A DNA stretch of 38,883 nt from Sedimentisphaerales bacterium (GTDB lineage Bacteria > Planctomycetota > Phycisphaerae > Sedimentisphaerales > SM23-30): positions 1 to 38,883 of the forward strand of contig JAFGHE010000286.1 of NCBI GenBank assembly GCA_016930295.1, read 5' to 3'. Positions 130 to 20,964 of this stretch are shown here, piece by piece. Position 1 is the stretch's first letter. Each line of letters opens with the position of its first letter. A program made the position numbers and the translations under genes. The notes below the pieces were generated by a model that was not told the DNA's origin, searched no databases, and saw only the letters and a program-made list of their open reading frames with translations.

Positions 130-146
130 ATTAAATGGAGCCAATA

Positions 147-2417
147 ATGAACATTGCAAATCAAAAACTGTCATTTAAAGAAAAAGCCGGCTACGGCTTT
201 GGTGACTTGGCGTCGGTATTATACTGGCAAACGTTTATGGCTTATTTGCTCTTTTTCTATACGGATGTATTTGGGATTTCCGCAGTGGCGGCCGGAACGC
301 TGCTACTGGTTTCCCGGCTGTGGGATGGTGTAAACGACCCCATGATGGGCATGATCGCCGACCGTACCCGCACCCGCTGGGGGAAATACCGACCCTACTT
401 ACTCTGGCTGGCCGTACCCCTGGCCGTTTTGGGAGTTTTGACCTTTAGCACCCCCAATTTAAACATCACCGGAAAAATTATTTATGCGTATGTAACGTTT
501 ACCTTATTAATGATGTTATATACGGCCATCAATATCCCTTATTCCTCCATCTTAGGGGTTATTACCTCAAATCCCACCGAACGGACCAGCGTTTCTTCCT
601 ATAAATTCATTTTTGCTTATATCAGCGGAACCATTGTATCAGTCACCCTGCTGATTATGGTGGACTATGTGGGCCGGGATAATAACTCCATCATTCAGGT
701 AAGTAATACCGATTCCGTCATTCAAATCAAAGAGGTGGCTCAGGGCAGCGCCAAAGTCAAATTATATGCAACCGATAGCGCCGGGGAAACCACCGAAACG
801 GAATTCGCCTTCCGGGTAAATCCCACCGAAAGTAATTTACCCCTTATTAAAAATAGTATACCCACCACCAACCTGGAACAGGGTTTTCTAAAACATGAAA
901 TCGATCTTTCCGATGTATTTATAATAAATAATCCTGAAGATATTAAATACAAAATCAGCGTCAGTAATGATTCGGTGGTGGAGGCCGAAGTCGAAAACTC
1001 TAAGATTGTTCTGAAAGAAGTTGGAGTTGGATCCGCCCGCATCACTCTGACAGCCGAAGATAAAAAATGGGGTTCAACCGAAACCAGATTTGACGTCAAT
1101 GTAAATGAAACCGGTAATTCCAGGCCCGTGGTCGCCCATGCGGTGAATGAATACAAACTGAAACAGGGATTTGATGCGTTTACCCTGAATTTGGCCGCGA
1201 TGATCACAGATCCGGATAATGATCCCCTGATATTTGTCGCCGAAAGTGATAACACTAAAATTGTATCCCCCAGTGTTAAAGACAGCGAGTTATCATTTTT
1301 AGAGCGAAAACCGGGTCTGGCCAATGTAAAAGTAAAGGCCTCCGACGGCAAAGGAGGCATTGCCGAATATAAATTCAAAGTCATTATTACCTCAGCTGAA
1401 AATAATCCGCCCTTCCTGAGTAATCCTATTTCGAATATTTCCCGCAAAGCAGGTTTTGGAAGCCAGCAAATCGATATATCCGATGTTTTCATCGATGTCG
1501 ACGACGGCCCCCTGACCTATTCCTTTCAGGTCGTCAATTATGCCAAAGGCTGGCGCAATTCATTTATCATATATGGTATTGCCGCCGTATTGTTTTTTAT
1601 GATTGCCTTCCTGTCGGTGAAGGAGCGGGTACAGCCTCCTAAAGCCCAGAAGACCTCTGTTAAGAAGGATTTGGTCGATTTATTCAGTAATAAACCGTGG
1701 GTATTGTTGTTGATAACCACCTTACTGTTCATACTTTTTGTGGCGACCCGTATGAGTGTAACGGCTCACTATTTTAAATACTATATCGGGGAACACCAGG
1801 TTGAGTTCATAAACAAGACCTACAATCTGGGCTTCGAGGAACTGGTCTCCGGATTTAATGCCGTGGGACAGGCCTGTTCCATACTCGGGGTTCTCTTTAT
1901 CGCCTGGTTTGCCAAAGTCGTCGGGAAACGAAGAGCGTTTTTGCTATTCTTTATCATTGCCTGTATTTGTACCGGCGCGTATTACTTTTTAAGGCCGGAC
2001 CAGTTGTTCCTGATATTCTTCCTGCAGGCGATCGGGTCCTTTACCGGCGGTCCGCTCAGTCCGCTCATCTGGGCCATGTACGCCGATACCGCAGATTATT
2101 CCGAATGGAAAACGGGCCGCCGCGCGACAGGACTGATATTTTCCGCGTCCACCATGTCCCAAAAGTTCGGATGGGCAATTGGCGCCGCGGTGGTCGGTGC
2201 GTTATTGAGCTATTTTGGATTCCGGGCCAATGAAATTCAGTCGCCCGAAGTCCTCAATGGGATTAAGGCGCTTATGAGTATTATTCCCGTGGCCGCCGGC
2301 GTGGTAGCTATTTTTATTATGTTATTTTATAAACTGGATGAAAAAACCATGAAGCAAATTGAAGGCGACCTTTCCGAAAGGCGAAAGGCAAGCGATGAAG
2401 ATACGGCCCCGGCTTAA
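147..2417 (+). CDS. GPH-family sugar/cation symporter (MFS) with a large insert in the TM5-TM6 loop
   Basis: Predicted inner-membrane symporter of the glycoside-pentoside-hexuronide family, expected to import a disaccharide with a cation. The N-terminal half has the family pattern: a GYGFGDLAS start, an Asp-containing DGVNDPMMG motif, and RTRTRWGKYRPY in the first cytoplasmic loop. TM5 ends near residue 178 and TM6 resumes at KGWRNSF near residue 466. Between them lie about 286 residues of Ig/cadherin-like repeats, where ordinary members have only a short loop. By family topology this loop is periplasmic. The C-terminal half (TM6-12) looks intact. I chose the ATG at 147 because GGAG at 137-140 is well spaced for it; an in-frame ATG at 135 lies on top of that signal. 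Normal family length is about 450-480 aa; this protein is 756 aa. The GH130 phosphorylase and mannanase-epimerase genes downstream suggest the substrate is mannosyl-glucose or mannobiose. Confidence 0.88.
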   Translation: MNIANQKLSFKEKAGYGFGDLASVLYWQTFMAYLLFFYTDVFGISAVAAGTLLLVSRLWDGVNDPMMGMIADRTRTRWGKYRPYLLWLAVPLAVLGVLTFSTPNLNITGKIIYAYVTFTLLMMLYTAINIPYSSILGVITSNPTERTSVSSYKFIFAYISGTIVSVTLLIMVDYVGRDNNSIIQVSNTDSVIQIKEVAQGSAKVKLYATDSAGETTETEFAFRVNPTESNLPLIKNSIPTTNLEQGFLKHEIDLSDVFIINNPEDIKYKISVSNDSVVEAEVENSKIVLKEVGVGSARITLTAEDKKWGSTETRFDVNVNETGNSRPVVAHAVNEYKLKQGFDAFTLNLAAMITDPDNDPLIFVAESDNTKIVSPSVKDSELSFLERKPGLANVKVKASDGKGGIAEYKFKVIITSAENNPPFLSNPISNISRKAGFGSQQIDISDVFIDVDDGPLTYSFQVVNYAKGWRNSFIIYGIAAVLFFMIAFLSVKERVQPPKAQKTSVKKDLVDLFSNKPWVLLLITTLLFILFVATRMSVTAHYFKYYIGEHQVEFINKTYNLGFEELVSGFNAVGQACSILGVLFIAWFAKVVGKRRAFLLFFIIACICTGAYYFLRPDQLFLIFFLQAIGSFTGGPLSPLIWAMYADTADYSEWKTGRRATGLIFSASTMSQKFGWAIGAAVVGALLSYFGFRANEIQSPEVLNGIKALMSIIPVAAGVVAIFIMLFYKLDEKTMKQIEGDLSERRKASDEDTAPA
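681..1538 (+). repeat. In-frame block of Ig/cadherin-like repeats inside the symporter gene
   Basis: Residues 179-464 of the symporter consist of a C-terminal half repeat (179-230, 52 aa), a full repeat (231-324, 94 aa), a second full repeat (325-418, 94 aa) and an N-terminal half repeat (421-464, 44 aa). The full repeats share an LKQGF/LEQGF element, an LSDVF or LAAMI element, an aspartate-rich turn such as DPDNDPL, a V-G-x-G-S-A or P-G-L-A-N-V element and a closing beta strand. The last half ends in YSFQVVN, where a full repeat reads YKISVSN. The first half begins NSIIQV, where a full repeat continues DSVVEA. The two halves are therefore contiguous in repeat phase and together make one 96-residue unit. 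Such modules usually occur in secreted adhesins and enzymes, not inside transporters. Confidence 0.8.
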
Positions 2418-2560: not shown

Positions 2561-3547
2561 ATGAGTCAAACAATCATTGGTGAACCATTACCAAATATTC
2601 CCTGGGAAGATAAACCGGCCGATTGCCGAGAAGCCGTGTGGCGCTACAGCCAGAATCCCATTATCAAACGGAATCCCGGTCCCCAGGCAGCTCGCGTATT
2701 TAATAGTGCGGTCGTTCCCTATAAAGGTCAGTTTGTCGGCGTTTTTCGGGCGGATACCCGCAAGGTCCGGCCCCAACTGTTTTACGGCGAAAGCACTGAT
2801 GCCCTTAACTGGACCCTCGAGGACGAACCGATTAAATGGCAGGACGAATCCGGAAAGCCGGTGAAAAACGGTTATGCCTACGACCCGCGCCTCTTAAAGG
2901 TCGAAGACACCTACTACATCATCTGGTGTGACGATTTTCCCGGCCCATCAATCGGCATGGGCAAGACCAGGGATTTCAAAACCTTTATCAAGATGGAAAA
3001 TCCCCTCATGCCCTTCAACCGCAACGGCGTACTCTTCCCGCGCAAGGTCAACGGCATGTATGCCCTGCTCAGCCGGCCCAGTGACAGCGGGCATACGCCA
3101 TTTGGTGACATCATCATTTCTTACAGTCCGGATATGACTTTCTGGGGCAAACACCGCCTGGTCATGCAAAGCGGCGGCGGCTGGTGGCAGGGTACCAAAA
3201 TCGGCGCCGGCCCGGCCCCTATCGAAACCAGCCAGGGCTGGCTGCTGTTCTATCACGGCGTGATCACCACCTGTAACGGCTATGTTTACAGTATGGGCGC
3301 CGCCCTGCTGGATCTAAACGATCCTACTAAAGTGCTCCTGCGCACCAGTGACTATCTGGCCACCCCGGAGGAAGATTACGAAACCGTCGGCTTCGTCCCT
3401 AACGTCTTTTTTCCCTGCGCCACCCTGGTTGACGCTCTGACCGGCCGAATCGCCATCTACTACGGCGCCGCCGACACCGTCACTGCCGTGGCCTTCTGCC
3501 AGGTGGATGAACTGCTGGCCTTTTTGAAAGAAAATTCGGAAATCTAA
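2561..3547 (+). CDS. GH130 phosphorylase, probable 4-O-beta-D-mannosyl-D-glucose phosphorylase
   Basis: Predicted cytoplasmic phosphorylase that splits beta-1,4-mannosyl-glucose with phosphate into mannose-1-phosphate and glucose. The 328-residue sequence is GH130 from end to end: NPIIKRNPG and FNSAVVPY near the N-terminus, the YDPRLL motif with the likely proton-donor Asp at residue 108, PFNRNGVLFPRK, SRPSDSGHTPFGD, TKIGAGPAPIETS, the FYHG motif, and IAIYYGAADT near the C-terminus. The long conserved blocks resemble the mannosyl-glucose phosphorylase branch (the Bacteroides fragilis type) rather than the mannooligosaccharide branch. I assign this from memory of the family. There is no signal peptide. 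AAGGAG lies upstream of the ATG. It sits 143 nt after the symporter gene and 102 nt before the mannanase-epimerase gene, the expected company for this enzyme. Confidence 0.88.
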   Translation: MSQTIIGEPLPNIPWEDKPADCREAVWRYSQNPIIKRNPGPQAARVFNSAVVPYKGQFVGVFRADTRKVRPQLFYGESTDALNWTLEDEPIKWQDESGKPVKNGYAYDPRLLKVEDTYYIIWCDDFPGPSIGMGKTRDFKTFIKMENPLMPFNRNGVLFPRKVNGMYALLSRPSDSGHTPFGDIIISYSPDMTFWGKHRLVMQSGGGWWQGTKIGAGPAPIETSQGWLLFYHGVITTCNGYVYSMGAALLDLNDPTKVLLRTSDYLATPEEDYETVGFVPNVFFPCATLVDALTGRIAIYYGAADTVTAVAFCQVDELLAFLKENSEI

Positions 3548-3649: not shown

Positions 3650-6346
3650 ATGATAAAGTCCAAGCGCATTTCTGTCATGGTTGCTTCGTTTTTCCTGGCG
3701 ATTTCAGGTGTTTCGGGAACTACGGCTATGAAGGAACACAAAGGAACCCTCCCTTTAAAAAACTTCATTACCCGTGACGGGGATAAATTGATGGCCGGCG
3801 ATCAGGAGTTCCGGTTCTTTGCCCTGGCCTCTTCCAACCTGCATCAGAACGAAGAGCAGTTACTCCCGGATTATTCCAACCGGTTCCCGGACGAATATGA
3901 AATCCGTGATACCCTCACCTCCATCCGCCAGATGGGCGGCACCGCGACCCGCTGCTTTACCCTTTCGATCCGAAAAAAAGGCCAGGAGGAGATACCGGTT
4001 TATATCGAGGGACCCGGCGACTATAACGAATCAGCGTTTCGCACGCTGGACAAGGTATTACAACTATGCAACGAACTGGATGTCCGGCTTATCCTGCCGT
4101 TTATCGATTCTCATTCATTCTGGGGCTGGCGCGGTGTAAAGGAATTCGCCGCTTTTCGTGATAAAGACGGCAACGTTTTCTGGTCCGATCCCCAACTCAA
4201 GGAGGACTTCAAAAACCTCATTCAGGACGTACTCAACCGGAAAAATGTTTATACCGGCGTTCTATACAAGGATGACCCGGCCATCCTGGCCTGGCAGTTG
4301 GGCAACGAACTGGACAGCTATATCTACGACAACCAACTGGCCGATAGAGAAGCATTCTGGAAGGAACAGATCACCCACTGGTCGCAGGAGATGGCCGCAC
4401 ACATTAAAAGCCTGGACCACAACCATCTGGTTATGGAAGGGGGGGGTGACATGGCTAAATTTTTGGGAGATCCCCATATCGATATAATCAGCAGGCATTA
4501 TTATGTGTACTGGAATGCCTGGGCCGGGCGCTCCACGGACCTGGCTGACCTGAACCGCAAAGACAAACAGCAAACCAAAGCCGCCGGCAAGGTTCTGATT
4601 GCCGATGAGTTTGGTATGGGCGATACGGAGGTACTGGTCAAGTTTATGGATGAAGTGATACGCAACGGTACCTCGGGCGCCCTGTTGTGGGGTATCCGGT
4701 CTCATCGCCGGGATGGCGGATTCTTTTTTCACGGCGAATCAGGCGGCTATGCCTCCTATCATTGGCCCGGATTTGCCTCGGCTGATAATATTGATGAGAA
4801 AAATCTTTTGCATACCTTAAGGCAAAAGGCTTATCAGATTCGCGGCCTGCCCGAACCGCCGCTGCCCGTGCCCACCCCAACTCCGCACCTGTTGCCCATC
4901 CATTCCGTTGATGATATACTATGGCGTGGCTCTACCGGGGCCGCCGTTTATGATATTGAACGAGCCGAAACGCCCAAAGGTCCCTGGAAAATTGTAGGAA
5001 AAGGAATTGAAGATGCCGTGCCGGACAGAAGACTGTTTGGCAATATAACGGCCCCAAAAGGCAAAACCTATTATTACCGGATCAAAGGCAGGAACATATC
5101 CGGCGAAACGGACTATTCCAATATACAGGAGAGTGCCATGACCGTACATATGCAACCATTAAAAGAAAAGGCGCTGGAGGAAGTTAGAAACAACATTCTG
5201 TCGTTCTGGATGGAAAATACTGTCGATACCGCCAACGGTGGCTTTTACGGACAAATCGCTCCGGATAATACCCCTGACCGGGAAGCCAATAAGGGCATTG
5301 TTTTAAACGCCCGTATTCTCTGGACCTTTTCCGCGGCCTATCGCGTTTTGCAGGACGAAAAATACCTCAAGATCGCTCAAAGAGCGTATGACTATTTGAC
5401 CCATTACTTTTTAGATAAGAAGTATGGCGGCTATTATTATGAACTGGATTCTATGGGAGAACCGGTGGATCCGCGCAAGGTGATTTACTGTCAGGCGTTT
5501 GCCCTTTACGGCCTGAGCGAGTATTACCGTGTGACCCTCGATGAAGATGTCTTGAAACAGGCGCTGGACCTGTACCGTTTAATGAAGCAACATGCCCTTG
5601 ATACCGAGTATCAGGGGTATTTTGAAAATTTTACCCGTCAGTGGAAACTGATGCGCAGCGCCTGGACGGATTCCAGTCTCGCTCGCGATAAATCATTGAA
5701 TACCCATCTTCATATCATTGAAGCTTATACCTGTCTCTATCTCGTCTGGCCGGACGATACACTCAAAAAGGATATCACGGCCATGCTCGATTATCTGTTT
5801 CTGGAGAAAATGATCGATCCCGACGCCGGTCATTTCCGGGATTTTTTCAGCCGCGACTGGCAGGCGCTCCGGGATGATATGTCCTGGGGCCACGACATCG
5901 AGGCGAGTTGGCTGCTGCTGGAGACCGCCCATATTCTCGGCGATGAATCCTTAATCAAAAAATGCGAGGAACTGGCCCTGAAGATCGCCGACTTTACCTA
6001 TCAGGGCATTTCCCCCCAGGGCGGACTCTGGAACGAGGAATTATCACTATCCAGGAATGTCCCCTATTCATGGTGGCCCCAGTCCGAAGGCGTGATCGGA
6101 TACCTTAACGCCTGGCAGATATCCCATAACCAGAAATACCTCGATACCGCCAACCTTATCTGGAATTTCATAGACCGGTATTTCATCGACCATCAATACG
6201 GCGAATGGATTAACAGCCTCGACGAAAACCTGACCCCCAGACCCTTTGCCAAAGTAGGCTTCTGGAAAGCTCCCTATCACAATACGCGCATGTGCCTGGA
6301 AATCATCACCCGCGCCGACGATATGTTATCTCCGCCGGCGAAATAA
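3650..6346 (+). CDS. Secreted GH5 mannanase-like / Fn3-like / cellobiose (mannobiose) 2-epimerase fusion
   Basis: A signal peptide covers roughly residues 1-26. A GH5 (beta/alpha)8 domain follows to about residue 405, with the acid/base Glu220 in WQLGNEL and the nucleophile Glu320 in IADEFG; endo-beta-1,4-mannanase is the best guess from the sequence and neighbours. A Pro-rich linker leads into an Fn3-like domain (about 418-490). From residue 497 comes a full-length N-acylglucosamine/cellobiose 2-epimerase (about 400 aa) with NGGFYG near its N-terminus, Arg555 in LNARILW, His686/His688 in THLHIIEAY, His748 and Glu751 in SWGHDIEAS, and His877 in PYHNTRMCLE. These are the equivalents of the residues that bind and epimerise the reducing-end sugar. 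In the known pathway mannanase releases mannobiose, the epimerase makes Man-Glc, and a GH130 enzyme phosphorolyses it. Known epimerases of this kind are cytoplasmic and not fused. AAGGGGAG precedes the ATG. Confidence 0.87.
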   Translation: MIKSKRISVMVASFFLAISGVSGTTAMKEHKGTLPLKNFITRDGDKLMAGDQEFRFFALASSNLHQNEEQLLPDYSNRFPDEYEIRDTLTSIRQMGGTATRCFTLSIRKKGQEEIPVYIEGPGDYNESAFRTLDKVLQLCNELDVRLILPFIDSHSFWGWRGVKEFAAFRDKDGNVFWSDPQLKEDFKNLIQDVLNRKNVYTGVLYKDDPAILAWQLGNELDSYIYDNQLADREAFWKEQITHWSQEMAAHIKSLDHNHLVMEGGGDMAKFLGDPHIDIISRHYYVYWNAWAGRSTDLADLNRKDKQQTKAAGKVLIADEFGMGDTEVLVKFMDEVIRNGTSGALLWGIRSHRRDGGFFFHGESGGYASYHWPGFASADNIDEKNLLHTLRQKAYQIRGLPEPPLPVPTPTPHLLPIHSVDDILWRGSTGAAVYDIERAETPKGPWKIVGKGIEDAVPDRRLFGNITAPKGKTYYYRIKGRNISGETDYSNIQESAMTVHMQPLKEKALEEVRNNILSFWMENTVDTANGGFYGQIAPDNTPDREANKGIVLNARILWTFSAAYRVLQDEKYLKIAQRAYDYLTHYFLDKKYGGYYYELDSMGEPVDPRKVIYCQAFALYGLSEYYRVTLDEDVLKQALDLYRLMKQHALDTEYQGYFENFTRQWKLMRSAWTDSSLARDKSLNTHLHIIEAYTCLYLVWPDDTLKKDITAMLDYLFLEKMIDPDAGHFRDFFSRDWQALRDDMSWGHDIEASWLLLETAHILGDESLIKKCEELALKIADFTYQGISPQGGLWNEELSLSRNVPYSWWPQSEGVIGYLNAWQISHNQKYLDTANLIWNFIDRYFIDHQYGEWINSLDENLTPRPFAKVGFWKAPYHNTRMCLEIITRADDMLSPPAK
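5127..5140 (+). promoter_or_regulatory. Internal Shine-Dalgarno and ATG at the start of the epimerase domain
   Basis: AGGAGAG at 5127-5133 lies just before an in-frame ATG at 5138, with 6 nt between AGGAG and the ATG. The codons that follow match the usual N-terminus of free-standing cellobiose 2-epimerases. Initiation here would yield a 402-residue epimerase without signal peptide, the normal family length. The site could be active, or it could be a leftover from two formerly separate genes joined by loss of the upstream stop codon. Confidence 0.55.
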
Positions 6347-6499: not shown

Positions 6500-9400
6500 T
6501 CAATCCAGCAGCCAGTTCTTGGCAAACTCCGAATATTCATGGAGATTGATCACACAATCACCATTCAGATCAATCTCGCCGCAATCGGACGCCAGCCAGT
6601 ATCCCAGGAACGCCGGTAAATCGTTCATATCCACGATGTTATCCCCGGTGAAATCCCCGTATAACGCTTGCGGCGGGATGCCGGCGATTTCAATGTTATC
6701 GATCGCCATATCGCCGCGATAGCTGCCGGCCGCCACGGCCCGGAACCGAATCCGGATCGGGCCGCTGTAAGCGCTCAGGTCCACAATCGCCCGGGTGTAG
6801 GGGGCAGTACTGGAGACATGCTGCTGCCCGCTGCGGCTCCAGATACCGTAATGCCAGGCGCCATCGTGAACATCGACACTGAGCGTACCGATATCGTCGC
6901 CGTACATGTGATAATAAAACATCATAACGCGGTCCATGGCCTCTTCAATCTCAGGACTTTCGAGGATCGCCGTATCGCCGGGATTGAAGGCGCCGCCGTC
7001 TTCCGAGGAGCACTCCAGATAGACATACCAGGTGCTGCTCAGGGCCCCGTTATCCGGTCCGGTATAAGCCGAGGATGTATCACCGGAATTGCGGGTCCAG
7101 TCATGCGAATCTATGCCTGTCATATTTACCCAGTCCCCGAAGCCGCTTTCAAAGTCTTCATAATGCATGGGAAAAATGGCCGAGGCTGAGTCTTCGTTCG
7201 AGTAACCGGACTCATTCAATTCCTCATCCACAGCGGTTACTACGTAGTAATAAGTGATACCGTTGGTAAGAGGGGCGATATCGTTATAAATCGAATTGCT
7301 TACCAGTGAAGTGTTAATCTGGGTATAGCCGCTGCCGCTGGTCGTGGAGCGATACACATTATAGCCGGCCAGGTCACTTTCCAGGTTACTGTTCCAGTCA
7401 AGTAAGATTATTTCTTCGACCGGAGTGGCTGTCAGGCCGGTCGGCGCCGCCGGCGGGGAGGAATTAGTAGAGGTAGCGCCGGCTTCATTCGAGTAACCGG
7501 ACTCATAGGAGGAGTTATCCACCATAGTGACCACATAGTAATACGTAACACCGCTTTCAGTACTGGTATCGTTGTAATAGGAACTGCTTAAAAGGGATCC
7601 ATTAAGTTTATTGTAGTCGCTGCCACTGGTAGTGGAACGATAGAGATTATAGCCGGCCAGGTCGCCGCCGGTGTCATTCCAATCCAGAAAGATATAGGTT
7701 TCCCCGGCCGTGGCCTCCAGGGCGGTCGGCGCCGGCGGCGGCGTTGTATCATGAACCGTCTCCGAAAGCGCCAGGGTTATGATCATTCTGGGCTGAATCG
7801 TTAACTGACTGATTTCGTTATAACTTCCCACTTTAACACAGTTGTTAGACTGATTGGTACGATAAAACTCAGCATCGGCATTGCTAAAGCCGGTATAGGA
7901 AATGTCGGCATCAATCGAGGTGTCGGGACTTGTATTGATGAGCACTACGGTCAGGTCCTGATTGTCCGGGCTGATATAGGCCGACATTCTCAAATCAGAA
8001 GCATTCTCCGAGGCATACACCCGTTGCCAGCCCGAATGGATAAAAGCAGAATAATGCTTAAATCCATAGTAGTCGGAGTTAATGATGTAGTCGGAACTGC
8101 CCATAGACGGCAGGGTTACCAGCCCGCCGGATTCACCCCAGAACAAATCCCAGTACAAATATCCCGATACTCCCTCTACCGTCAGTGAATTATGCAGCAG
8201 TAGTGCCAGGTTCAGGGCATCCGGCCATGAACCCGTGCTGGCCTCGTACTCTGTCTGAAAAATGGGCCGGTCGCCATATTCTGAGGCGAAGCTGGTCATG
8301 TACGAAATATAATCGTCGGGATTTTGACCACTGTTGATATTATAGAGATGGTGTGAATACCCATACACATGGGAATAGTTGGTTATATTATCTAAATAGG
8401 TATAGGAGCTGAGAAGACCTGTTGCTTCGGCCGCGAGCATCTTGGGCATGCCCGAGCCCATGCGGGAATTTAGTTCCTGCCAGACCGCTTCGAAGGCCTG
8501 GTTATAACCGGGCCACCAGTACGATTGCCGGCCGCTGTATCGGCAGGAGTCCCAGTCCGTCTCATAATCCGGCTCATTTTGTATGTTGATATAGTCGGCC
8601 TGAACACCGTATGTACCGCTCCATACCTCCAGACTGTCCGCCCACCATTCCGCCAGTTCATCATACATATATTGACCGGAAGTGTCCTTCTTGAGGGTGC
8701 CCCCGTTGAGGCTGTCGTTACTCTTCAAATAGACCGGCGGTGACCAGCAGGATATCATGATCTTCAGAGGCCTTCCTAACGCGGCCTCGCCGGCGGCGAT
8801 AATTTCCGCCGACCGGCTCAAGTAGCCGGGATTGCCCTGATCATAAACATTGCGCAAACGGTAGATATCAAGCCCCAGCTCTTTGAAAAGAATGTTATAG
8901 AGGGTTTCTTTCAGGGGATGGGCGGTAAGAAAGTTTTCATACCACGCGCCGGCTGCCCCAAAACCTTCTATCACCTGGTAGCGCGTATTCACATTGATCT
9001 GGCAGACGGCGTCCGGATTGCTGGTACCGGTCTCAGGTCCGTAAACCACCACGTTATCCACGCAGAAGTTCACTCCCGCGTCAGGACCATCAAAATACAG
9101 CAGCAATTCGGTCAGGGCCCCGTCCACTCTCAGGGTGTAATTGCCTGAAAATTTGGTCCATTTGCTGTTAACCGCCGGGACGCTGTCAATCGTATAATAA
9201 TCAGTACCACTGCTATCGGTTATTTCTATGGCAATATCGATCTTGTCGCTGGCGGCATTTACGGTCCTGACCCACCCGGAGATCTGATAGTTTTCTCCGA
9301 TCACCATTTTGCCCATCATATCCTGCTGGATCCCCTGCGTGCCGGCATTGCGGTCAAATGCCCGGCCGCTGTAGGACCCGCCCGCTACCGGCCAGGTCAC

Positions 9401-9547
9401 GGTGTTGATAGAACACCCGCGCGCCGACCAGCCGGTGGTGCCACTTTCAAAACCGGGATTTTCCAGCACATTAGCGCTGCCATACACCGGCATCCCTGAA
9501 TAAATAACCACCAGTGATAAACACACCCAGATAGATTTGCCCATCAT
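6500..9547 (-). CDS. Secreted multidomain GH30 glycosidase (CBM-GH30-Fn3-Fn3-MAM-dockerin-like)
   Basis: A 1015-residue exported enzyme, probably active on xylan or a related plant polysaccharide. After a signal peptide (about 1-25) comes a CBM4/9/22-like jelly-roll module (about 28-170, opening ENPGFESG). The GH30 domain spans about 178-600, with the acid/base Glu325 in IQNEPDY and the nucleophile Glu433 in FQTEYEAS. Two very similar Fn3 modules follow (about 606-790, each with AGYN-YRSTTSGS), then a MAM-like beta-sandwich (about 793-960, containing YEDFESGFGDW), then a dockerin-like pair of calcium loops (GDFTGDNIVD and DLNGDCVINL). The start at 9547 has AGAGGAGA just upstream. The gene is monocistronic, with a promoter and a long leader that are shared with the second GH30 gene at 18571-20964. 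No cohesin gene is seen here, so the C-terminal module may anchor by another route. Confidence 0.88.
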   Translation of the reverse strand: MMGKSIWVCLSLVVIYSGMPVYGSANVLENPGFESGTTGWSARGCSINTVTWPVAGGSYSGRAFDRNAGTQGIQQDMMGKMVIGENYQISGWVRTVNAASDKIDIAIEITDSSGTDYYTIDSVPAVNSKWTKFSGNYTLRVDGALTELLLYFDGPDAGVNFCVDNVVVYGPETGTSNPDAVCQINVNTRYQVIEGFGAAGAWYENFLTAHPLKETLYNILFKELGLDIYRLRNVYDQGNPGYLSRSAEIIAAGEAALGRPLKIMISCWSPPVYLKSNDSLNGGTLKKDTSGQYMYDELAEWWADSLEVWSGTYGVQADYINIQNEPDYETDWDSCRYSGRQSYWWPGYNQAFEAVWQELNSRMGSGMPKMLAAEATGLLSSYTYLDNITNYSHVYGYSHHLYNINSGQNPDDYISYMTSFASEYGDRPIFQTEYEASTGSWPDALNLALLLHNSLTVEGVSGYLYWDLFWGESGGLVTLPSMGSSDYIINSDYYGFKHYSAFIHSGWQRVYASENASDLRMSAYISPDNQDLTVVLINTSPDTSIDADISYTGFSNADAEFYRTNQSNNCVKVGSYNEISQLTIQPRMIITLALSETVHDTTPPPAPTALEATAGETYIFLDWNDTGGDLAGYNLYRSTTSGSDYNKLNGSLLSSSYYNDTSTESGVTYYYVVTMVDNSSYESGYSNEAGATSTNSSPPAAPTGLTATPVEEIILLDWNSNLESDLAGYNVYRSTTSGSGYTQINTSLVSNSIYNDIAPLTNGITYYYVVTAVDEELNESGYSNEDSASAIFPMHYEDFESGFGDWVNMTGIDSHDWTRNSGDTSSAYTGPDNGALSSTWYVYLECSSEDGGAFNPGDTAILESPEIEEAMDRVMMFYYHMYGDDIGTLSVDVHDGAWHYGIWSRSGQQHVSSTAPYTRAIVDLSAYSGPIRIRFRAVAAGSYRGDMAIDNIEIAGIPPQALYGDFTGDNIVDMNDLPAFLGYWLASDCGEIDLNGDCVINLHEYSEFAKNWLLD

Positions 9548-18570: not shown

Positions 18571-20964
18571 TTACCAGTTTGGTGTGCAGCCAGAGTCTGT
18601 GGGGTTATTACACTGCATCCACTGCATTGCGAAATCGCTGAAGTCGGCAAAATCAACGTCACTGTCCGGCTCAAAATCACTATGTTCACAATTGTCGGGT
18701 TCTGAGCAGTCAGTATCAAGCCAGTAGTACGTAAGTACTTCAAGATCGCCCAAGTTTACATAACAGTCCTCATTAAGGTCTGAGGCAAGCCGGTACCCGC
18801 CACTTTGAACCTGCGAACAGTTTTCAAATCCGTTGGCTTCGGCGGCCTGGACCACGAAGCCGATTATTACCTGGCGATTAACGCTGTTGTGGGTAACGCT
18901 TGGAGTTTCATCAATAGCGGTTGCGGATTTATAGCCTGTTACACCCGTGGATGATGCCGATGACTGGTGGCTTCCCTGGGTAAAACCGTTGTTTAATGTA
19001 TATGTACCCGTATTGCCGCATGTGGCTGCGTCTATAACCATATCGCCGTTATTTGTGGTAAGCGAAGACGTTAAGATTGTAGAGCTTGTACCTCCTGCGG
19101 TAGCAGAATCTCCGGTGAGGTCAGCCTGGTTGACATTTGAAAGAAATACACTGGCATATTTAATCTCGGCCGGTTCTGTATCCCAAGTCGGGTTAAATGT
19201 ATCATTGGTCGCAGCCGTGATACCCGCCTCGTCAAGAATATATGCCGCCACATAAGCCTCGATGGTAGCACTGTAGTTTCCCTCAACGACTTTGTTCATC
19301 GACTGCCCGCCGTATGTTACATCAGTAAGATCCATGACGCCGTCCATCTCACCGTGTGCGACGAAAATTAGCGCGCGGTTTGTAGCGCTCGGCTTTTCAT
19401 TGGTCAGACCTGTTTGCCACGGTGTTACCAGTTCCACGTCAGTGCTTGGCGGGTCGGTTGTCGCTGATGCCGTGCCGGACCATTCCGTTTCATTTTGAGC
19501 AGGGGAGTCATCACGTGCCCTAACACGGAATGTATATGACGTCGATGGTGTAAGATCCTGCGCTTCATAAGTTAAGCTTGTCTGCCATGTGCTGCTGGCA
19601 CTGCCGTCTGTAGTACATTCGAAATAATAGGACACGGGTGGACTATCATCGCTGGCGGTCTCAGCGGTCATAATGATCGAAGTTGACCCTGTTGCCGCAG
19701 GCTCGCCGCCACTGGCCCATTGCATCGGGTCCGGAGTCGGTGGAGTAGTTTCGCCACCGCCGATAGTGCCAACAAAAGTGTTTATACTATTCGCGGCCAA
19801 AGTATTAGTACTGCCCACAGAGCCCATATTACTTAAATTATTATCACTTGTTGTTTCATACTTTGTATAACTGTCCACGCTGCCACCAGACAGCGAAAAT
19901 GTCACGCTACTGGAAGACGAGTTCTGATTTATAGCAACAATCACCAGAGAATCGCCGCTTTTATACGCAGTTACATAAACACCAGAAGAAGGGCTGGCGG
20001 TCGCATCTACCCTGGTGTATCCCGGTCGGACGAATTTAGCGAAATGGCTCATAACGTAACCGCGTTTGGTAACATTTCCGTCTTCATCCATCGGGCCGTA
20101 GGATCTTCTTATATACCACCAGATGTATGCATTCATATTCGCAACCATACAATCATGAATTTCCTTGCCGGTTGCAAGATTGTCCACCCAGTCAGTTTCG
20201 AGCACAAGGTGTTCAGTCATGAATATATCTTTCCCTTTGTTTCGAGCCAGGGGATAATCAGAGAGACCTCCTCCATAGATATGGCCGGCGATGATTTCCA
20301 TTTGCGCTTCGGCAGCCGAATCGTTTAGTATGGGGTCAGTAAAACTTTGATTGAAATTAAACGACTCGGCAACCATTACCCTGGTTGGAATTACAGATGC
20401 ATTATTTGTGAGAAAATTTCTCATTTGTGTCGACGTCCAGTCACATGACTCGTAGGACACTGCGATATCGGGCTCGTTTTGAAGGGAGATGGCATACAAA
20501 GAGGCTCCATTCGATGACATATAATTGGCAAAATCCGTTAAATGATCAGCATAATCATCATATGCATCCGTTCTTAGTTCACCTCCGATGAGATCATTGT
20601 TAGTTTTCATAGATGCCGGAGGCGACCAGGGTGATGCGACTACAATCGCTCCGTGGCTTTTAGCTCTTACGGCGGCCGAAATTTCGCCGCTCCAGTTGGC
20701 GTTGTTATGTGGGACGTCGATACGCAAAATAGTAAAGCCGATCTGTCCGGGACCGTTGCCAAAAGCCGTATCAACCTGGTCATTAGTTAGGGTGCCAATC
20801 CATCTGGGAAAATTCATACCACCAAAGCCCCTGATAGTCTGCCTTGGGGTGCTTAAATCAATGTTCGCGGTTGCCGCCATCGCAGCCTGCGGTAGTATCA
20901 GGCAGAATGTAAAAATTGCCATCGCTATGAATCTGTAACTATGGATTTGCTTGCCATTAATCAT
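18571..20964 (-). CDS. Secreted GH30 glucuronoxylanase-like enzyme with Fn3, beta-sandwich and dockerin-like modules
   Basis: A 797-residue exported enzyme expected to cut glucuronoxylan. After a signal peptide (about 1-31) the GH30 catalytic domain opens QTIRGFGGMNFP and contains the acid/base Glu164 in LQNEPD and the nucleophile Glu251 in FMTEHL. The block WWYIRRSYGPMDEDGNV followed by KRGYVMSHFAKFVRPGY is characteristic of subfamily 8 glucuronoxylanases (XynC type). An accessory beta-sandwich reaches about residue 395. Then come an Fn3 module (about 408-505), a beta-rich module of about 190 residues with NRALIFVAHGE and VTYGGQSMNKVV (exported-protein module of unknown role), and two dockerin-like calcium loops (SDLNEDCYVN and SDFEPDSDVD). 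It shares its promoter and leader with the other GH30 gene and lies downstream of the LacI-family gene. Confidence 0.92.
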   Translation of the reverse strand: MINGKQIHSYRFIAMAIFTFCLILPQAAMAATANIDLSTPRQTIRGFGGMNFPRWIGTLTNDQVDTAFGNGPGQIGFTILRIDVPHNNANWSGEISAAVRAKSHGAIVVASPWSPPASMKTNNDLIGGELRTDAYDDYADHLTDFANYMSSNGASLYAISLQNEPDIAVSYESCDWTSTQMRNFLTNNASVIPTRVMVAESFNFNQSFTDPILNDSAAEAQMEIIAGHIYGGGLSDYPLARNKGKDIFMTEHLVLETDWVDNLATGKEIHDCMVANMNAYIWWYIRRSYGPMDEDGNVTKRGYVMSHFAKFVRPGYTRVDATASPSSGVYVTAYKSGDSLVIVAINQNSSSSSVTFSLSGGSVDSYTKYETTSDNNLSNMGSVGSTNTLAANSINTFVGTIGGGETTPPTPDPMQWASGGEPAATGSTSIIMTAETASDDSPPVSYYFECTTDGSASSTWQTSLTYEAQDLTPSTSYTFRVRARDDSPAQNETEWSGTASATTDPPSTDVELVTPWQTGLTNEKPSATNRALIFVAHGEMDGVMDLTDVTYGGQSMNKVVEGNYSATIEAYVAAYILDEAGITAATNDTFNPTWDTEPAEIKYASVFLSNVNQADLTGDSATAGGTSSTILTSSLTTNNGDMVIDAATCGNTGTYTLNNGFTQGSHQSSASSTGVTGYKSATAIDETPSVTHNSVNRQVIIGFVVQAAEANGFENCSQVQSGGYRLASDLNEDCYVNLGDLEVLTYYWLDTDCSEPDNCEHSDFEPDSDVDFADFSDFAMQWMQCNNPTDSGCTPNW

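What the first reader, a model, noticed from the sequence alone, without database searches (positions are those of the whole stretch)
681..1538. A sugar symporter carries a three-unit, phase-shifted Ig/cadherin-like repeat block in its TM5-TM6 loop
Seen: an otherwise normal GPH symporter gains about 286 in-frame residues between TM5 and TM6. The insert is half repeat, full, full, half repeat, and the end halves (44 + 52 aa) join seamlessly in repeat phase to equal one unit of about 94. Known: this loop is periplasmic in MFS proteins, and such repeats are adhesion or substrate-binding modules. Inference: the two end halves fold together into one domain, closing a three-domain ring over the transporter mouth, where it could capture oligosaccharides or bind the secreted mannanase-epimerase. 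A circle released by recombination between tandem repeats and inserted at a random point would give exactly such an integer, permuted block.
Basis: partly seen in the sequence, partly recalled or inferred. Interest (0 to 1): 0.85.

Follow-up and report, generated by a model that had tools for sequence, protein, structure and literature searches.

The report
Sugar transporter carrying three-domain periplasmic ring
A bacterial sugar importer carries, in one loop on the outer face of its membrane, three cadherin-like domains of which one is split between the two ends of the insert, so that they probably close into a ring; the same module sits at the same place in nine related transporters from two bacterial groups, which makes it a real but unstudied accessory part.

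Summary
Window 135-2417 encodes a 760-aa GPH sugar:cation symporter with a 286-residue insert (residues 183-468, nt 681-1538) between TM5 and TM6. It is not a misassembly: I found nine proteins in eight genomes (class Phycisphaerae, Bacteroidales, Balneolaceae) with the same insert at the same residue. In all nine the order is second-half / full / full / first-half of one cadherin-like unit, and the two halves add up to exactly 95 residues. A profile built only from the full units matches the joined halves (E 1e-16 to 2e-24; shuffles above 0.8). AlphaFold2 models the whole protein confidently (pLDDT 90.6, pTM 0.86). The seven strands of the split domain fall at the same unit positions as in the intact ones, and the chain does not superpose on rod-like cadherins (about 30 A). 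A closed three-domain ring mounted on the N-bundle is therefore the best model. Insert-less close homologs sit beside the same GH130 and GH94 genes, so the ring is an accessory and does not set substrate class. Its function is open; I favour a docking or capture platform over the transporter mouth. The released-circle origin is not supported over simpler routes.

The parts
135..2417 (+). GPH-type sugar:cation symporter gene, 760 aa, with the insert
   Evidence: TIGR00792 385 bits (cut-off 231), PF13347 309 bits (cut-off 27), both split at residue about 181/470
135..680 (+). N-terminal part of the transporter, TM1-TM5 (helix 147-179 is TM5)
   Evidence: PF13347 positions 1-163; AF2 helices
681..854 (+). 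second half (strands D-G, residues 183-240) of the split cadherin-like unit
   Evidence: unit profile positions 38-95, E 1e-11 alone; strands 187-192, 195-200, 204-213, 219-229
855..1139 (+). first full cadherin-like unit (U2, residues 241-335)
1140..1424 (+). second full cadherin-like unit (U3, residues 336-430), with the DxDxD / DGKGG motif typical of Ca-binding Big_9 modules
   Evidence: unit profile; PF17963 Big_9 matches the same unit in homologs above cut-off, E 1.3e-6 and 4.5e-6
1425..1535 (+). first half (strands A-C, residues 431-467) of the split unit, running directly into TM6
   Evidence: unit profile positions 2-35; strands 435-438, 443-447, 461-467
1536..2417 (+). C-terminal part of the transporter, TM6-TM12
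   Evidence: PF13347 positions 166-427
2561..3547 (+). GH130 beta-1,4-mannooligosaccharide / mannosyl-glucose phosphorylase: probable user of the imported sugar
   Evidence: PF04041 E 8e-75
3650..6346 (+). GH5-like + AGE/cellobiose 2-epimerase fusion with a hydrophobic N-terminus
   Evidence: PF07221 E 2e-37, PF00150 E 1e-8; NF041848 below cut-off; N-terminus printed

Best explanation
A normal GPH symporter for beta-1,4-linked di/oligosaccharides (mannose type here) carries in its periplasmic TM5-TM6 loop a cassette of three cadherin-like beta-sandwiches. One of the three is split: strands D-G follow TM5 directly, strands A-C lead directly into TM6, and the two halves fold together, closing the three-domain chain into a ring on the N-terminal helix bundle. 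Splitting a domain lets a chain of elongated domains start and end at neighbouring helices without a flexible tether, and it forces the number of units to be whole. The ring is an accessory. Its most likely job is to hold a periplasmic partner (a glycan-processing enzyme or binding protein) or a glycan chain over the entrance, as the Ig pair of PepT1/2 is thought to hold trypsin. Shown: cassette, phase, invariance, conserved position. Predicted: closure of the split domain and stiffness. Inferred: ring geometry and function (for the docking role alone I would say 0.35).
For: Nine proteins in eight genomes with the same insertion point and the same half-full-full-half order. Halves sum to exactly 95 residues in all nine although the full units carry indels (93-98, once 119). 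AF2 of the whole protein: pLDDT 90.6, pTM 0.86; insert alone 91.1 and 0.75. In unit numbering, strands of the split domain are 5-8, 13-17, 31-37, 42-47, 50-55, 59-68, 74-84, against 5-8, 13-17, 30-36, 42-47, 50-55, 59-69, 73-84 (U2) and 4-8, 14-17, 31-36, 42-47, 50-55, 59-68, 74-84 (U3). Foldseek aligns the chain to rod-like cadherins over 260-290 columns, but at 28-31 A rmsd and TM 0.25-0.29, as a curled chain would give (toy geometry). Each unit is more like its counterpart in other proteins (30-35%) than like its neighbours (25-27%), so three units have stayed in place for long. Close insert-less homologs sit beside the same GH130 or GH94 genes.
Against: Model coordinates and PAE could not be read, so contacts between the halves and ring closure are inferred from strand positions, pTM and failed superposition. 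pTM of the insert alone is only moderate. The homologous alignment of the insert is nine sequences deep. No partner is identified; no second linked gene common to all carriers was found, and the loci differ (xylan, GH94, GH130).
Confidence: 0.6

Rival explanations
1. The ring itself binds the sugar (a built-in periplasmic binding protein or CBM) and feeds the transporter.
For: All carriers with readable neighbourhoods lie beside enzymes for beta-1,4-linked mannan, xylan or gluco-oligosaccharides. Single units of the same family occur in secreted GH5 enzymes. One tryptophan (residue 312, FG turn of U2) is kept in five of nine.
Against: Other conserved aromatics are hydrophobic-core positions shared with the repeat profile; Trp312 is Ala/Lys/Arg in the other four. 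No CBM family match. Insert-less homologs use the same phosphorylases.
Confidence: 0.2
2. The insert is a tolerated passenger without much function: a domain cassette that folds on its own, does no harm in this loop, and is gained and lost.
For: Patchy distribution: carriers fall in at least four lineages of the transporter tree, one clade rejected (AU p 1e-5). The insert evolves faster than the core: median end branches 0.7 against 0.19. Insert-less sisters are common, and L068 (TDAATGVINEAKGF) may keep a deletion scar.
Against: No frameshift or stop in nine copies; unit number, phase and split-domain length are invariant although units diverged to about 30%.
Confidence: 0.17
3. The terminal halves do not close; the loop is a floppy string of two domains with two disordered stubs.
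For: No coordinates were available to see the contacts; pTM of the insert alone is 0.75.
Against: pLDDT of about 84-97 in both halves, all seven strands present at unit positions, invariant length 95.
Confidence: 0.06
4. Misassembly of the metagenome bin.
For: The window is a draft-genome contig with the gene 134 nt from its end.
Against: A second paralog in the same genome and seven homologs in other genomes have the same junctions.
Confidence: 0.01

Closest known systems
GPH sugar:cation symporters (TIGR00792, MelB and YagG type; fold of MelB and MFSD2A)
   Same: Twelve-helix core, family profile over cut-off, best structural matches MFSD2A and MelB (TMt 0.80-0.88)
   Different: Insert-less members in the alignment have only a few residues between TM5 and TM6; here 286 residues with three domains
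PepT1/PepT2 extracellular domain (Beale et al. 2015, PMC4597091)
   Same: Ig-like beta-sandwiches inserted inside an MFS transporter, transport core otherwise normal
   Different: PepT: two intact tandem domains between TM9 and TM10 of the C-bundle of animal POT proteins. Here: three cadherin-like units, one split across the ends, between TM5 and TM6 of bacterial GPH proteins
MFS transporters with separate ectodomain partners (MCT-basigin, PMC12894981; MFSD1-GLMP, PMC11252000; read as abstracts only)
   Same: An accessory ectodomain accompanies an MFS core
   Different: There it is a separate subunit; here it is built into a loop
Bacterial cadherin-like / Big_9 / He_PIG repeats of adhesins and glycan-active enzymes
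   Same: Unit length about 95, DxDxD and DGxGG motifs, Foldseek and profile matches to cadherins
   Different: Usually rod-like tandem arrays in secreted proteins (general knowledge); here an out-of-phase block of exactly three units in a membrane protein loop

Membership tests
GPH symporter family (TIGR00792 / PF13347) | profile score over the curated cut-off | tested here: met
   385 bits vs 231; 309 bits vs 27
GPH symporter family (TIGR00792 / PF13347) | twelve-helix MFS fold like MelB | tested here: met
   AF2 plus Foldseek: MelB 8t60 TMt 0.88, rmsd 3.3 A; MFSD2A TMt 0.84
GPH symporter family (TIGR00792 / PF13347) | sugar:cation symport | not testable with these tools
   needs uptake assays
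Cadherin-like / Big_9 repeat superfamily | curated profile match | tested here: inconclusive
   window units below cut-off (Cadherin_4 12.3 bits); orthologous unit in L009 and L011 over the Big_9 cut-off (27.9 and 29.6 vs 23.6)
Cadherin-like / Big_9 repeat superfamily | seven-stranded Greek-key sandwich | tested here: met
   seven strands per unit, cadherin and Ig matches in PDB by fold and by profile
PepT-type extracellular domain | inserted between TM9 and TM10 | tested here: not met
   insert lies between TM5 and TM6
PepT-type extracellular domain | two intact Ig-like lobes | tested here: not met
   two intact units plus one split unit
Carbohydrate-binding module | CBM family match or conserved aromatic platform | tested here: not met
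   no CBM hit; no exposed aromatic conserved in all members

The most novel reading that the evidence does not exclude
A class of MFS sugar transporters with a closed three-domain ring, in which one domain is completed across the two ends of a membrane loop, that sits over the substrate entrance and acts as a docking gate for periplasmic glycan-processing proteins; a cassette shared between phyla.
Probability: 0.35. Interest if true: 0.75.

Novelty: new variant of a known kind. Interest (0 to 1): 0.62.

Why it matters
Large domains inside MFS loops are rare and their roles mostly unknown; the best-known case, PepT1/2, is in animals. Here bacteria offer a natural experiment: transporters with and without the same rigid module beside the same phosphorylase genes. 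The split-domain design also shows how a multi-domain chain can be grafted into a tight loop without a linker, which is useful for protein design (rigid fiducials, tethered enzymes).

Tried and rejected
Misassembly: rejected by eight homologs. Released-circle insertion: not needed. Any out-of-phase block must have an integer number of units to fold, and unit divergence (25-27% within, 30-35% between proteins) shows that the triplication is older than the carriers; no DNA repeat trace is left. One origin with simple vertical descent on the transporter tree: rejected, but the insert tree does not significantly contradict the core tree (AU p 0.12), so repeated loss and module transfer remain open. 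A donor adhesin in the carrier genomes: none found; the only other match at E below 1e-4 was one unit of a GH5-like enzyme in G1094. Plasmids: one weak partial match. Literature on such GPH inserts: nothing found in the held library. The structure service gave no coordinates to the Python box. Viral fold library: only generic Ig-like matches.

Full report
What is there. The first gene of the window (135-2417, +) is a 760-residue GPH-family sugar:cation symporter: TIGR00792 385 bits against a cut-off of 231, PF13347 309 bits against 27, each in two pieces that stop at residue about 181 and resume at about 470. Residues 183-468, nt 681-1538, are extra. In the predicted model TM5 ends at residue 179 and TM6 begins at 469; by the standard MFS topology (established knowledge) this loop faces the periplasm.

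It is not an assembly error. The same genome (G000, a 4.2 Mb draft in 329 contigs; same order as G077, whose contig C1 matches in length, 37,211 bases, the contig CAIODZ010000001 of a Phycisphaerales MAG) has a second symporter with the same insert at contig C251, beside xylose isomerase and a GH10-GH43 enzyme. Searches of 161 genomes of the order, 397 of the class and 392 of the phylum gave five proteins in four genomes, all in the order. A scan of named genomes added a Bacteroidales MAG (L062) and Balneolaceae bacterium ANBcel3 (L063, cut by a contig end after the insert). Searches around those two added G949 (L152) and G1094 (L153): three carriers among 344 genomes of the order of L062, one among 129 in the order of L063. 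That makes nine proteins in eight genomes. The module is rare and patchy.

Repeat phase. A profile was built only from the two full units of all nine proteins (18 sequences). It matches the C-terminal piece joined in front of the N-terminal piece as one continuous unit in every protein (E 1e-16 to 1.8e-24; window 8.7e-23), and twenty shuffles of each give nothing better than 0.8. On the intact proteins the same profile reports, in order, positions about 36-95, full, full, about 2-39. The joined length is 37 + 58 = 95 in all nine, while the intact units vary (93-98, and 119 in L012). Units within one protein are 25-27% identical; the same unit in different proteins 30-35%. So the three positions have had separate histories since before the carriers diverged.

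Structure. AlphaFold2 with 40 aligned sequences (nine with the insert) gave mean pLDDT 90.6 and pTM 0.86 for the whole protein; the insert alone with nine sequences gave 91.1 and 0.75. The seven strands of the split domain lie at the same unit positions as those of both intact units, mostly to the residue. Strand C (461-467) runs straight into TM6; strand D (187-192) follows TM5 after seven residues. In a cadherin/Ig sandwich strand C belongs to the sheet with F and G (established knowledge), here 204-213 and 219-229 of the other half, so a strand assignment at 461-467 points to pairing across the halves; this is inference, since no coordinates were available. Foldseek places the transporter with MFSD2A and MelB (closest superposition to inward-facing MelB 8t60, 3.3 A) and the insert with cadherin and Ig chains. 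The chain aligns to straight cadherins over 260-290 columns at 28-31 A rmsd, with TM-scores of about one domain in three: it is not a rod. A toy geometry gives 31-37 A for 90-degree bends and 38-45 A for a closed triangle against an ideal straight rod; real cadherins are themselves curved, so this excludes a rod but does not prove closure. With both ends fixed to adjacent helices and one domain shared between the ends, a three-membered ring is the simplest reading.

Distribution and history. On a tree of the transporter core without the insert (40 rows), carriers fall into at least four lineages, and holding them as one clade is rejected (AU p 1e-5; for the five GH130/GH94-type carriers p 2e-25). 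The window's closest core relatives, L064 and L065 (68 and 66% identity), have no insert. The insert's own tree is weakly resolved and does not significantly conflict with the core tree (p 0.12). Either an old insert was lost many times (the insert-less L068, inside a carrier clade, has TDAATGVINEAKGF at the junction, close to the carriers' VINEAKGW), or the cassette moved between transporters by recombination in the flanking helices. I cannot decide. The insert changes roughly three to four times faster than the core (median end branches 0.7 and 0.19).

Context and function. The window gene precedes GH130 and a GH5-epimerase fusion, a beta-mannan pathway. By reading of the translated neighbours and phmmer: L152 is next to GH130- and GH5-like genes; L012/L041, L062 and L153 next to GH94-type phosphorylases; L009, L011 and L050 next to GH10 or GH43. 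The common theme is beta-1,4-linked oligosaccharides. Insert-less homologs sit beside the same GH130 (L013, L015, L016, L020, L021, L071) and GH94 (L066, L069, L071) genes, so the insert does not decide the substrate class. Conserved residues of the insert are core aromatics and acidic residues typical of Ca sites (D359, D363, D404, D454, position 456); no exposed aromatic is conserved throughout (Trp312 in five of nine). This argues against a general sugar-binding platform and for a structural or protein-docking role, as proposed for PepT1/2, whose Ig pair binds trypsin and was described as an unusual insertion inside the MFS fold (PMC4597091). Units of the same family also occur singly or in pairs in GH5-like enzymes of Bacteroidota (L163 in G1094, L073, L118), a possible source.

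Other inserts. Among 116 related GPH frames, insertions of 25 or more residues in the TM5-TM6 loop also occur with unrelated sequence (L132 about 148 aa, L149 64 aa, L079 33 aa); L042 carries about 185 aa in the TM7-TM8 loop. The TM5-TM6 loop therefore tolerates, and may attract, extra domains.

Verdict. Observation confirmed; ring interpretation likely but seen only through prediction; function open; origin story not needed. It is a new architecture within known families rather than a new kind of system.

Noticed in passing
L042:6234-8210 (-), G083:C63: GPH symporter (659 aa) with an unrelated insert of about 185 aa in the TM7-TM8 loop; no Pfam family over cut-off, weak GH115_C hint, looks like a beta-sandwich.
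   Followed up: partly
L132:1487-3313 (+), Bacteroidetes bin_228: GPH symporter (609 aa) with an unrelated insert of about 148 aa in the same TM5-TM6 loop; no Pfam match.
   Followed up: partly
L149:1480-3108 (+), G814:C149: Another GPH symporter of the ring-carrying Bacteroidales genome has a 64-aa unrelated insertion in the TM5-TM6 loop.
   Followed up: no
L087:5947-8361 (+), Rubrivivax MAG: GPH symporter fused at its C-terminus (cytoplasmic by topology) to a GH17-like domain (PF00332 E 5e-12).
   Followed up: partly
L163:301-2448 (+), G1094:C146; L073:2511-4940; L118:2013-4655: GH5-like secreted enzymes that carry units of the same cadherin-like family; L073 and L118 lie near GPH transporters, L163 is in the genome of a ring carrier.
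   Followed up: partly
L012, second unit (protein residues about 274-308): 24 extra residues with the repeated phrase KVENQNKK / KVENQNKE: a recent partial duplication inside U2.
   Followed up: no
window 3650-6346: Fusion of a GH5-like domain with a cellobiose-2-epimerase-like domain, with a hydrophobic N-terminus; an unusual combination if the epimerase is exported.
   Followed up: no
window 6500-9547 and 18571-20964: XynC-like (GH30-type) xylanases, the first with CBM4_9 and MAM domains: the window combines mannan and xylan degradation.
   Followed up: no
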